Assembly: GCA_937907245.1 (NCBI GenBank)
Contig: CALCUM010000002.1
Span: forward strand, 372,001 to 436,000
From: an uncultured Rhodobiaceae bacterium
GTDB lineage: Bacteria > Pseudomonadota > Alphaproteobacteria > RS24
Direction: 5' to 3'
Length of the DNA stretch: 64,000 nucleotides
Shown one piece after another: positions 18,953-21,475 of the stretch. Under the pieces are notes generated by a model. It was given only the letters and a program-made list of their open reading frames with translations. It ran no database searches and was not told the DNA's origin. How positions within the stretch are numbered: the first letter of the stretch is position 1; every line of letters starts with the position of its first letter. Position numbers and translations under genes: made by a program.

Positions 18953-18963
18953 GGTTTCTTTTT
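18930..18963 (+). terminator. Rho-independent terminator overlapping the der stop codon
   Basis: The arms AAACCCT (18931-18937) and AGGGTTT (18951-18957) form a 7-bp stem with a 13-base loop, followed by CTTTTT (18958-18963). The last codons and TAG of der lie inside the hairpin. It separates the der operon from the accessory island. Confidence 0.65.
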
Positions 18964-19066
18964 CGCGATAAATTAAGTACGAAAATATATCTAAAATTAA
19001 CGCTCTTTTAGGGGTGCAGGCTGTCTTCTGTGTTTTATGAAACATGGAGTTCAAAAAAGGCAACCG

Positions 19067-19294
19067 ATGGAAATCGTTCGAAATCGGCAACGACCTCGCT
19101 GCGCCGTCTGCACTTCGTCGGCCATTGCGCTAAACGGCGCCTGCGTCTGGCACGCCATCTCGCAAACCTGGCGGGTTACCCAACCCGACCTAAACAAAGA
19201 CGCCGATGGGGCGTTGTGCCCTAGCAAGAAGAACCAAGGTTTTTACTGCCAAGACTGCGAAACATTCGTGGGCGTTAGGTTTGGGCGTCTCTAA
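19067..19294 (+). CDS. Cys-rich miniprotein, probable zinc ribbon
   Basis: A 75-residue protein not assigned to a family. Two CxxC knuckles, RCAVC near residue 12 and YCQDC near 65, plus a Cys at 26 and a His three residues on, could build one or two zinc sites. The middle reads DADGALCPSKKNQGFY. I take the ATG at 19067, which follows AAGG by six bases; an upstream in-frame ATG at 19037 is possible. It lies alone between the der terminator and the convergent membrane-protein gene whose stop is 16 bases away. Coding status is supported by the paired CxxC motifs rather than by known homology. Confidence 0.5.
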   Translation: MEIVRNRQRPRCAVCTSSAIALNGACVWHAISQTWRVTQPDLNKDADGALCPSKKNQGFYCQDCETFVGVRFGRL

Positions 19295-19309
19295 GAGGCT
19301 TTGCGAATC

Positions 19310-20515
19310 CTAGTCTGGCTTCAGTAGCTCGGTAGTCTGGGCAGGTAAGATGTTTGGGTTTGGCTCATTCGGCTTCGATCGCTTTGTCCATATTAAGTTA
19401 CTAATGAGATTATCACTCTCATGGATATCTGCCTTTCCAGGAGGAATTTTGACGTTCTCGAAAATAATATCTGTCAAGGTCTCAAGGTTTTTTGTGTCCT
19501 CTGCAGATGACGTGTCTCGGCGACTGCTGAAGCCGACATAAAGCTCCATGAGTCTCTGTCTGTAGTTGTAAGCTTCATAGAGTTGTGAGCGTCTATTTAT
19601 TTGCCTGTTGATGTGCAGAGCTACCCAAAATATTGGCGATAAGAAGGTAATTCGACCGACCATACCGAGAAACGACAATTTGTCTCCAAATATATTCTGT
19701 TGATTGAAGTCGGCAGTGACAGATTCCCAGAAAAAATTAATGCCAAAGGTTGCAAGAATAAGGGCGGCGGAAAGTAAAAGCAGAGCTAAAAAGGAAGAAT
19801 ATAGCACTAGGCTTACTAGGAAGTTTTTATCTCGGATTGTTGCGCAAAGCCCCTTGTTTAGCCCAGTATCTTCTTGAGGGTCGTTGCCATATCTCAATTT
19901 TGAAAATCTGAATGCGGTAGCGAGTCCTGTCGCTGCTGCGCTCGGTAGTAAGCTGGTTATGTCATTTCGAGTTTTTTCGATAAATTGTTTGTGGCCACTA
20001 TTTTTGTCGTTGATTTCTAATAAAAAATTATCAATCTGTGCATTCAGCTCGATAGCAGCTTGGTTTTGTGTTTTTACACCCTGAGCAGAGGTGATGGCAG
20101 CTTGGTTTTGTGCTTCTGCGCCTTCAGCAGATTTAGCTGCGGCTTGGCTTTGTGTTTCTGCGCCTTCAGCAGATTTAGTTGCGGCTTGGCTTTGGTTTTC
20201 TGCGCCTTCAGCAGATTTAGCTGCGGTTTGGTTTTGCGCTTCTGCATTTTGGGCAGAGGCGTTGGCGTCTTGGTTTCGCGCTTCTGCATTTTGGGCAGAG
20301 GCGTTGGCGGCTTGGTTTTGCGCTTCTGCATTTTGGGCAGAAATGCTGGCGTTATTGTCCCTTGAGTCTGCATTCTGGGCCGTGAGTTTAATTTCTTCGT
20401 CTATCTTACGCACACCCTGAGCTAGGCTATCGATTGTTTTGGCTGCCTCCGCCATGCTCTCTATGTAGTCCAGCAATTCTTGCTTTTTCATTTTACTAAT
20501 TGATTTATCTAACAC
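19310..20515 (-). CDS. Repeat-containing coiled-coil membrane protein, unknown function
   Basis: A 401-residue protein, not recognised. A helical N-terminus (1-48) leads into about eight 14-residue repeats (49-160) of the form AEAQNQAANASAQN, Ala/Gln/Asn-rich and compatible with two heptads of an alanine-type coiled coil. Then come a polar segment, two hydrophobic helices (about 232-262 and 281-300) and a cytosolic-looking C-terminal helical domain with RRSQLYEAYNYRQRLMEL. The layout recalls coiled-coil membrane proteins such as DUF6161, but I cannot confirm that. The GTG start at 20515 has AGAGAGGA six bases upstream. It is 34 bases downstream of an HNH endonuclease gene and is probably cotranscribed. 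The base composition looks more AT-rich than the flanking housekeeping genes. Confidence 0.8.
   Translation of the reverse strand: MLDKSISKMKKQELLDYIESMAEAAKTIDSLAQGVRKIDEEIKLTAQNADSRDNNASISAQNAEAQNQAANASAQNAEARNQDANASAQNAEAQNQTAAKSAEGAENQSQAATKSAEGAETQSQAAAKSAEGAEAQNQAAITSAQGVKTQNQAAIELNAQIDNFLLEINDKNSGHKQFIEKTRNDITSLLPSAAATGLATAFRFSKLRYGNDPQEDTGLNKGLCATIRDKNFLVSLVLYSSFLALLLLSAALILATFGINFFWESVTADFNQQNIFGDKLSFLGMVGRITFLSPIFWVALHINRQINRRSQLYEAYNYRQRLMELYVGFSSRRDTSSAEDTKNLETLTDIIFENVKIPPGKADIHESDNLISNLIWTKRSKPNEPNPNILPAQTTELLKPD
20058..20393. repeat. 42-bp in-frame tandem repeat, seven good copies plus one degenerate
   Basis: Units begin at 20058, 20100, 20142, 20184, 20226, 20268, 20310 and 20352 (degenerate). 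Each encodes 14 residues on the minus strand. Units 2-4 share GCGCCTTCAGCAGATTTA and units 5-7 share GCATTTTGGGCAGA, so two local duplication bursts are visible. Such repeats gain and lose units by slippage or recombination while keeping frame. Confidence 0.92.
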
Positions 20516-20549
20516 GTTAAATCCTCTCTTTTTTGCTTTTGGACGATGC

Positions 20550-21206
20550 CTAACTGTGATTCAATCGGCCGTCAATTTCCTTTAAAAGATAACTGCTAAT
20601 ATCCTTTTTGCTCTTCGCATCCGCGAAATGTGCCATGCGGTGATGGTGAGCGCATAAGACGGATAGGTTCCAGATGCCATCTTCGCCGCCTTCGCAGAGC
20701 GGCACAATGTGATGCACTTCGATGTAGAATTTTCCATCGGGCTTTTTAAAGCGATTGCCACAGTCTCTAATCAAACACTCGCGGCCAAAAGTTTGTCGCG
20801 CTTCTCTCGCCCAGCCTTTATCGCGCACATAGGTTTCCATAAAATGTTCGCGTTTCTCTGGCAGGCGGACAGGCCGCATTTTAAGTTTCGTTGACCTCTC
20901 CTTTATGCCTTCCGCGCCGTCCCATAAATCCGCATCGCGCATGGCTTCTTTTTCATGCTTCAGGTAGTCAATATTTCGCAGCGTATATATTCCCTGATTG
21001 TCGACGAAACTTACTAGCTCTTCGTCCCTAAGGAATTGCAGCTGTTGGCGAACTTTAGCGGCAACATTGTTGTTCTTGGGGTGCAAGGTTTGCAAAACGT
21101 TCTGCCGCTCCGCTAAAAAATCTCGTAGTGCAAAGGTTCGGCTGCCATGGGTCTCGCAATAATCTACGACTTCCCCAAGCACCTGCTGTTTCCAAGTCTG
21201 AGCCAT
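20550..21206 (-). CDS. HNH endonuclease with N-terminal winged helix; candidate modification-dependent restriction enzyme
   Basis: A 218-residue two-domain protein. Residues 1-76 look like a winged helix: WKQQVLGEVVDYC, then HPKNNNVAAKVRQQLQFLRD (42-61) and a FVDNQGIYTL wing. This matches the C-terminal domain of Dam-replacing/DpnI-type restriction enzymes as I remember it, where it reads methylated adenine. Residues 140-195 are an HNH nuclease: CLIRDC (144-149), EVHHIVPL (163-170) with the catalytic His pair, Asn180, and CAHHHRMAH (185-193), with Cys144, Cys149, Cys185 and His188 as likely zinc ligands. No DNA methyltransferase is nearby, as expected for a modification-dependent enzyme. It starts six bases after a Cys/His miniprotein gene. 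Nuclease fold is firm; methyl-dependence is inference. Confidence 0.85.
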   Translation of the reverse strand: MAQTWKQQVLGEVVDYCETHGSRTFALRDFLAERQNVLQTLHPKNNNVAAKVRQQLQFLRDEELVSFVDNQGIYTLRNIDYLKHEKEAMRDADLWDGAEGIKERSTKLKMRPVRLPEKREHFMETYVRDKGWAREARQTFGRECLIRDCGNRFKKPDGKFYIEVHHIVPLCEGGEDGIWNLSVLCAHHHRMAHFADAKSKKDISSYLLKEIDGRLNHS

Positions 21207-21212
21207 GTCGCG

Positions 21213-21410
21213 TCAAGTATCCCCACCGCAATGCACACAAGCCACCACCTTGTCGTAATATCTTGCGGCGCTTTTTAGCGCTGTGTCGGGGGTGAGGTGG
21301 CTACCTATATCGATACGGTCTGGGTGCTTTACCAGCAGGCCGCAGCCCTCTCGATGCACTTCATAGGTGCCGTCTTCTAATGGTTTCGGGTTGATGTGGT
21401 AAAAAGACAT
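21213..21410 (-). CDS. Small Cys/His protein of a widespread uncharacterised type
   Basis: A 65-residue protein: YHINPKPLEDGTYEVHREGC, then DIGSHLTPDTALKSAARYY, then VVACVHCGG. The G-x-x-E-V-H-x-x-x-C start, the middle alanine helix beginning after a short loop, and the terminal CxxC are a pattern I recall from many small uncharacterised bacterial proteins, likely zinc-binding. AGGAAA precedes its ATG. It is the first gene of a minus-strand unit with the HNH endonuclease (6-base gap), which suggests cotranscription. No function is known. Confidence 0.65.
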   Translation of the reverse strand: MSFYHINPKPLEDGTYEVHREGCGLLVKHPDRIDIGSHLTPDTALKSAARYYDKVVACVHCGGDT

Positions 21411-21475
21411 TGGCTTTTCCTGTTCTTGTTATTTCAGGAGAGCTTGCCACTGTGCGCCCGCAAACGCCAGTGCGT

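What the first reader, a model, noticed from the sequence alone, without database searches (positions are those of the whole stretch)
20550..21206. HNH nuclease fused to a DpnI-type winged helix: possible new modification-dependent restriction enzyme
The first 76 residues resemble the C-terminal winged helix of DpnI and Dam-replacing proteins (KVRQQLQFLRD followed by a short wing), which in DpnI reads N6-methyladenine. Here it precedes a zinc-supported HNH nuclease instead of a PD-(D/E)XK domain, and there is no methyltransferase gene beside it. That combination suggests a type IV-like enzyme cutting methylated DNA with a different nuclease core. The HNH motifs are seen; the methyl-sensing role is inferred.
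Basis: partly seen in the sequence, partly recalled or inferred. Interest (0 to 1): 0.8.

Follow-up and report, generated by a model that had tools for sequence, protein, structure and literature searches.

The report
Bacterial enzyme cutting adenine-methylated DNA
This bacterial gene encodes a small DNA-cutting enzyme that joins the methyl-adenine reader of the restriction enzyme DpnI to an McrA-like HNH cutter; it very probably destroys incoming DNA carrying the common GATC methyl mark, and it is a new bacterial member of an enzyme type already described in 2023-2024.

Summary
Window 20550-21206 (minus strand) encodes 218 residues: a DpnI-type winged helix (wH; Pfam DpnI_C, residues 5-74, E 2e-13) followed by a zinc-type HNH nuclease (residues 148-193). 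No methyltransferase gene lies beside it. Every wH and HNH residue shown by mutation to matter in DpnI or HHPV4I is conserved (K51, R53, Q54, Q57; H166, N180, H189). The model's winged helix overlays DpnI at 2.0 A.

Helbrecht et al. 2024 described and tested wH-HNH endonucleases as 6mA-dependent type IV enzymes; Lu et al. 2023 showed that HHPV4I without its SRA domain cuts Gm6ATC DNA.

Added here: (1) a bacterial subfamily with an McrA-like nuclease half, unlike HHPV4I's HNH_2; (2) in beta- and gammaproteobacterial relatives the gene lies among broken pieces of a DpnII-like methyltransferase and its PD-(D/E)XK partner, the same pair that follows the Gm6ATC-cutting gene drg in Neisseria; (3) in the host genus it occupies a restriction/defence-gene exchange site.

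Cleavage itself is untested.

The parts
20550..21206 (-). Gene for the wH-HNH endonuclease, 218 aa
   Evidence: ORF; Pfam DpnI_C + HNH; 14 full-length relatives in alignment A1
20985..21194 (-). DpnI-type winged helix, residues 5-74; predicted reader of 6mA in GATC
   Evidence: Pfam; AF2 pLDDT 76-92 in 10-residue means over residues 1-70; Foldseek DpnI 4kyw 2.0 A over 77 columns, 34% identity
21024..21065 (-). Recognition helix, residues 48-61 (VAAKVRQQLQFLRD), with K51, R53, Q54, Q57
   Evidence: Aligned to DpnI K229/R231/Q235 (chain numbering offset by 3) and HHPV4I K197/R199/Q200; helix 48-61 in the model
20628..20777 (-). McrA-like HNH nuclease core, residues 144-193: catalytic H166, N180, H189; likely zinc ligands C144, C149, C185, H188
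   Evidence: A1 profile against EcoKMcrA E 2e-13
21213..21410 (-). 65-aa ORF just upstream, conserved at this site in the genus, also in a genome without the nuclease; probably part of the host site, not of the enzyme
   Evidence: only a sub-cut-off DUF6233 match
19310..20515 (-). 401-aa ORF 35 bp downstream, with a long NAEAQNQ-type repeat and hydrophobic stretches; found at this site only in this genome, role unknown, not needed for the proposed mechanism
   Evidence: no Pfam family

Best explanation
A stand-alone, modification-dependent (type IV) restriction endonuclease of the wH-HNH kind. The N-terminal winged helix binds fully methylated Gm6ATC, fitting both adenine methyl groups against one helix (K51, R53, Q54, Q57), without base flipping. 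The C-terminal McrA-like HNH domain then cuts the DNA some bases away from the site. The host has no recognisable Dam-type GATC methyltransferase, so its own DNA is spared while Dam-methylated phage or plasmid DNA is destroyed. Its own CcrM mark (GANTC) is predicted to be invisible, because it never places methyl groups on both adenines of one ApT step. Shown here: the domains, conserved residues, stand-alone status and exchange context. Inferred: methyl dependence, GATC specificity, cutting distance and defence role.
For: Pfam DpnI_C and HNH above cut-off. R53 and Q57 are invariant in all 15 relatives, K51 and Q54 in 12 of 15; H166, N180 and H189 are invariant and match the HHPV4I residues whose mutation abolishes cutting (PMC10101028). 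HHPV4I without its SRA domain, i.e. wH plus HNH, still cuts Gm6ATC DNA and aligns at 34% identity over 188 columns. The wH model matches DpnI. No Dam over the curated cut-off, no N6_Mtase, one CcrM and one divergent D12 enzyme in the host. In relatives L005 and L008 the gene follows a truncated methyltransferase 51% identical to M2 of LlaDCHI, a DpnII isoschizomer (GATC); L005, L008, L010 and L018 carry remnants of a PD-(D/E)XK nuclease after it. Both pieces match the genes following drg at the N. gonorrhoeae NgoAXI (GATC) locus (63% and 56%). In the host genus the same site holds a type II R-M pair, an AIPR gene, a PD-(D/E)XK gene, or nothing.
Against: No cleavage, binding or methylome data. 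The nuclease half belongs to a different HNH subfamily from HHPV4I, and the published wH-HNH representative SruGXI lacks the GATC motif, so function is transferred across subfamilies. The D12 methyltransferase (L021) has unknown specificity. The model is only moderate overall (mean pLDDT 70; domain arrangement and the 92-117 linker unreliable). The broken R-M context is seen in distant relatives (46-50% identity), not in this genome.
Confidence: 0.82

Rival explanations
1. A modification-dependent endonuclease with a different target: 6mA in another context or another base modification.
For: Helbrecht et al. state that only about 10% of wH fusions carry the full GATC/6mA motif and that targets of the others are unknown. 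Relatives L011, L014 and L016 have T-x-R-R-x-x-Q instead of K-x-R-Q-x-x-Q, so specificity varies in the family.
Against: This protein has the full DpnI/HHPV4I motif K-x-R-Q-x-x-Q, and some relatives with the same motif lie in a broken GATC-type R-M cassette.
Confidence: 0.1
2. An ordinary type II-like nuclease protected by a separate host methyltransferase (CcrM or the D12 enzyme) rather than needing methylation.
For: Two adenine methyltransferase genes exist elsewhere in the genome; L012 has an N6_N4 methyltransferase about 1 kb downstream of its wH-HNH gene and L007 one about 3 kb upstream.
Against: The methyltransferases here are 91 and 294 kb away; CcrM is a core alphaproteobacterial gene; most relatives have no neighbouring methyltransferase, and where a GATC-type one adjoins it is truncated. 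The wH motif reads methylated, not unmethylated, DNA in both tested precedents.
Confidence: 0.04
3. A domesticated or regulatory DNA-binding protein with little nuclease activity.
For: Degraded copies exist in relatives (L013, L017/L058, L020, L027), so the gene is often lost.
Against: All catalytic and zinc residues are intact here and invariant in 15 members; patchy presence at a defence exchange site fits restriction better.
Confidence: 0.04

Closest known systems
wH-HNH endonucleases (SruGXI, HpaD253I, HhaH883I, HspR68I; Helbrecht et al. 2024, PMC11037411)
   Same: Same architecture without PUA domain, similar size (224-283 aa against 218), stand-alone genes; several show Dam-dependent toxicity in E. 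coli.
   Different: All tested examples below 300 aa are haloarchaeal; SruGXI lacks the full GATC motif that this one has. Their sequences were not compared directly here.
HHPV4I / HhiV4I (SRA/PUA-wH-HNH; Lu et al. 2023, PMC10101028)
   Same: 34% identical over wH and HNH; all six residues mutated in HHPV4I are conserved; wH+HNH alone suffices for Gm6ATC cutting.
   Different: HHPV4I has an extra N-terminal SRA-like domain, an HNH_2-family nuclease and a viral origin; here there is no SRA and an McrA-like HNH.
DpnI and Drg/NmeBII (PD-(D/E)XK-wH)
   Same: Homologous winged helix with the same K/R/Q reader residues; the Drg locus carries the same broken methyltransferase and nuclease as some relatives of this gene.
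   Different: Nuclease core is PD-(D/E)XK and lies N-terminal; DpnI cuts inside the site with a second methyl-reading pocket (W138) in the catalytic domain.
EcoKMcrA (NEco-HNH, PDB 6ghc)
   Same: Closest solved relative of the HNH half (A1 profile E 2e-13).
   Different: Reader is NEco for modified cytosine; no DpnI-type wH.

Membership tests
wH-HNH type IV endonucleases | N-terminal DpnI_C winged helix | tested here: met
   Pfam E 2e-13; Foldseek to DpnI 2.0 A over 77 columns
wH-HNH type IV endonucleases | C-terminal HNH with catalytic H, N, H | tested here: met
   Pfam HNH 27.1 bits against cut-off 21.4; H166/N180/H189
wH-HNH type IV endonucleases | No PUA-superfamily domain | tested here: met
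   Only 4 residues precede the wH; no such Pfam match
wH-HNH type IV endonucleases | 6mA/GATC reader motif equivalent to DpnI K229, R231, Q235 | tested here: met
   K51, R53, Q57
wH-HNH type IV endonucleases | Stand-alone, no cognate methyltransferase next to it | tested here: met
   cytosine methyltransferases not searched
wH-HNH type IV endonucleases | 6mA-dependent cleavage or Dam-dependent toxicity | not testable with these tools
   Needs protein or cells
PUA/SRA-wH-HNH (HHPV4I) | N-terminal SRA/PUA domain | tested here: not met
   218 aa, wH begins at residue 5
PUA/SRA-wH-HNH (HHPV4I) | HNH_2 (PF13391) nuclease | tested here: not met
   14.3 bits, below cut-off 21, while HHPV4I scores 50.2
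DpnI/Drg (PD-(D/E)XK-wH) | PD-(D/E)XK catalytic domain | tested here: not met
   Catalytic half is HNH
EcoKMcrA | NEco 5mC reader domain | tested here: not met
   N-terminal half is DpnI_C; EcoKMcrA matches by sequence only residues 113-203
IscB | RuvC + HNH RNA-guided architecture | tested here: not met
   Only the HNH stretch matches, 21.5 bits against cut-off 175

The most novel reading that the evidence does not exclude
A bacterial wH plus McrA-HNH subfamily, built separately from the haloarchaeal HNH_2 type, has in beta/gammaproteobacterial lineages taken over the same GATC R-M cassette that Drg sits in, leaving its methyltransferase and nuclease broken. Two unrelated nuclease cores carrying one methyl reader would then be exchangeable at one cassette, turning a GATC-protecting host into one that destroys GATC-methylated DNA.
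Probability: 0.4. Interest if true: 0.5.

Novelty: new member of a known kind. Interest (0 to 1): 0.36.

Why it matters
It extends 6mA-dependent wH-HNH restriction, tested so far almost only with haloarchaeal enzymes, to a bacterial subfamily with a different HNH core and the complete GATC motif. The link with broken GATC methyltransferases gives genetic support for the inferred specificity and a testable picture of how R-M cassettes flip into methyl-targeting ones. Practically, it is a candidate small reagent for Gm6ATC DNA.

Tried and rejected
Aromatic pocket in the wH: not applicable, since DpnI's wH uses an alpha-helix and W138 belongs to the catalytic domain. GATC avoidance as evidence: GATC is the most under-represented 4-bp palindrome in the window (observed/expected 0.35), but avoidance is similarly strong in genus and family members without the gene (0.2-0.66), so it says nothing about this enzyme. 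The 401-aa downstream ORF as a partner: absent at this site in the two other carrier species. The D12 methyltransferase as a cognate: 91 kb away, Dam model 58.1 bits against cut-off 114.85, only 24% identical to a GATC D12 enzyme and without its FNVPYG stretch; specificity stays unknown. Phage origin: only HHPV4 among phage records covers most of the query, viral contigs gave only short HNH matches, no plasmid record covers 80%. Haloarchaeal plasmid hits fetched as wH-HNH comparators had HNH_2 but no DpnI_C match. IscB and Cas8-HNH matches are limited to the HNH core. In one search the first list of query residues was printed from a gapped row and is wrong; only the alignment-based lines were used.

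Full report
Observation. The minus-strand ORF 20550..21206 encodes 218 residues. Pfam finds DpnI_C at 5-74 (2e-13) and HNH at 148-193, both over their curated cut-offs. PADLOC splits it the same way: methyl-directed type IV enzyme for the C-terminal half, methyl-directed type II enzyme (the DpnI kind) for the N-terminal half. Against solved structures the two halves match EcoKMcrA and DpnI separately, and a profile of 15 relatives strengthens both (2e-13 and 2.4e-8).

Family. A genome scan gave 19 loci, 14 with full-length relatives, in Alpha-, Beta- and Gammaproteobacteria, Planctomycetota, Ignavibacteria, Neomarinimicrobiota and Zixibacteria, at 40-72% identity. All 15 aligned members match Pfam HNH and 13 match DpnI_C. 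In an even draw of 385 genomes of the class only 2 carry it, the host included; in the host genus 3 of 12 do. It is a rare, patchy accessory gene.

Residues. DpnI K229, R231 and Q235 fall on K51, R53 and Q57 (the PDB chain count runs 3 ahead of DpnI numbering). HHPV4I K197, R199, Q200 and H296, N310, H319, each needed for full activity (PMC10101028), fall on K51, R53, Q54 and H166, N180, H189. C144, C149, C185 and H188 are invariant, consistent with zinc support. Three relatives (L011, L014, L016) have T and R at the K51 and Q54 positions, so the family is likely to have more than one target.

Structure. AlphaFold2 on 15 sequences gives a confident winged helix (10-residue means 76-92 over residues 1-70) but a weak linker and HNH loop, overall pLDDT 70. 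Foldseek returns DpnI (2.0 A over 77 columns, 34% identity) and EcoKMcrA. In DpnI the wH reads both methyls with an alpha-helix; the aromatic pocket belongs to the catalytic domain (PMC4117772).

Self-avoidance. The genome has CcrM, one D12 methyltransferase well below the Dam cut-off and no N6_Mtase. GANTC methylation never puts methyls on both adenines of one ApT step (inference from the site), and close methyl-methyl approach is special to the one-nucleotide stagger (PMC4117772). A reader of doubly methylated ApT should therefore ignore CcrM marks. Whether the D12 enzyme touches GATC is unknown.

Host locus. Between a conserved SDR gene and der, species of this genus carry alternatives: this enzyme in three; a type II R-M pair (DUF6996/DUF6997 nuclease plus N6_N4 methyltransferase) in G001; an AIPR gene in G005; a PD-(D/E)XK (PDDEXK_11) gene in G004; short gaps in five. 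Such exchange supports a restriction or defence role.

Broken R-M context in relatives. In Methyloglobulus (L005) and a Methylophilaceae MAG (L008) the wH-HNH gene begins right after a truncated methyltransferase; the two remnants are 66% identical to each other and 51% identical to M2 of the GATC system LlaDCHI on pSRQ700. Behind the gene in L005, L008, L010 and L018 lie pieces of a PD-(D/E)XK nuclease. The only plasmid-collection records that match both pieces are two N. gonorrhoeae replicons, where they directly follow a DpnI-like ORF. This is the drg/NgoAXI locus: Drg cuts GmeATC and is followed by a DpnIIB-like enzyme (PMC4269198), NgoAXI is assigned GATC, and its downstream methyltransferase is disrupted (PMC6789123). 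Identities are 63% for the methyltransferase and 56% for the nuclease. A Gm6ATC-cutting enzyme should not coexist with an active GATC methyltransferase, so a broken one beside both nuclease types is what shared specificity predicts. Caveats: these are MAG contigs, few in number, and the remnant's own specificity was not measured.

Known or new. Helbrecht et al. 2024 (PMC11037411) named wH-HNH endonucleases, tested several for Dam-dependent toxicity and found that 87% of wH fusion genes have no nearby methyltransferase. HHPV4I works without its SRA domain. The protein is therefore a new member of a known kind. Its distinguishing marks are the McrA-like HNH core, against HNH_2 in HHPV4I, the bacterial spread and the cassette context.

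Verdict. Real, function well predicted, architecture already published; interest moderate, mainly for the cassette takeover and the host exchange site.

Noticed in passing
window 18953-21475 and loci L048-L057: The der-SDR interval is an exchange site for restriction/defence genes in this genus: wH-HNH, a type II R-M pair, AIPR, PDDEXK_11, or empty.
   Followed up: partly
L005:5444-7220, L008:405-1813, L010:334-1615, L018:297-1034, L084:1434-3693: Remnants of one DpnIIB-like methyltransferase and PD-(D/E)XK nuclease flank wH-HNH genes in methylotrophs and other beta/gammaproteobacteria and follow drg in Neisseria gonorrhoeae.
   Followed up: yes
whole window; loci L062-L080: GATC (observed/expected about 0.2-0.5 in the genus) and GANTC (about 0.2-0.5) are strongly avoided, whether or not the nuclease gene is present.
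   Followed up: partly
19310-20515 (-): 401-aa ORF with a long NAEAQNQ-type repeat and hydrophobic stretches, lower GC (0.446), no Pfam family, seen at this site only in this genome.
   Followed up: partly
21213-21410 (-): Conserved 65-aa ORF at the exchange site, with only a sub-cut-off DUF6233 match.
   Followed up: no
L021 (G000:C2:482863-486585): Divergent D12 adenine methyltransferase overlapping a 302-aa ORF of no known family: possibly an undescribed type II R-M pair.
   Followed up: partly
L017/L058, L013, L020, L027: Internally deleted or split copies of the wH-HNH gene; the one in G018 lies at a different site and its HNH is fused in frame to another ORF.
   Followed up: partly
L011, L014, L016: Relatives with T-x-R-R-x-x-Q in the recognition helix in place of K-x-R-Q-x-x-Q, suggesting a different target.
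   Followed up: no
L083: Halosegnis plasmid HNH_2 protein with an MTaX1 domain, next to a gene annotated as DNA adenine methylase on the opposite strand.
   Followed up: no
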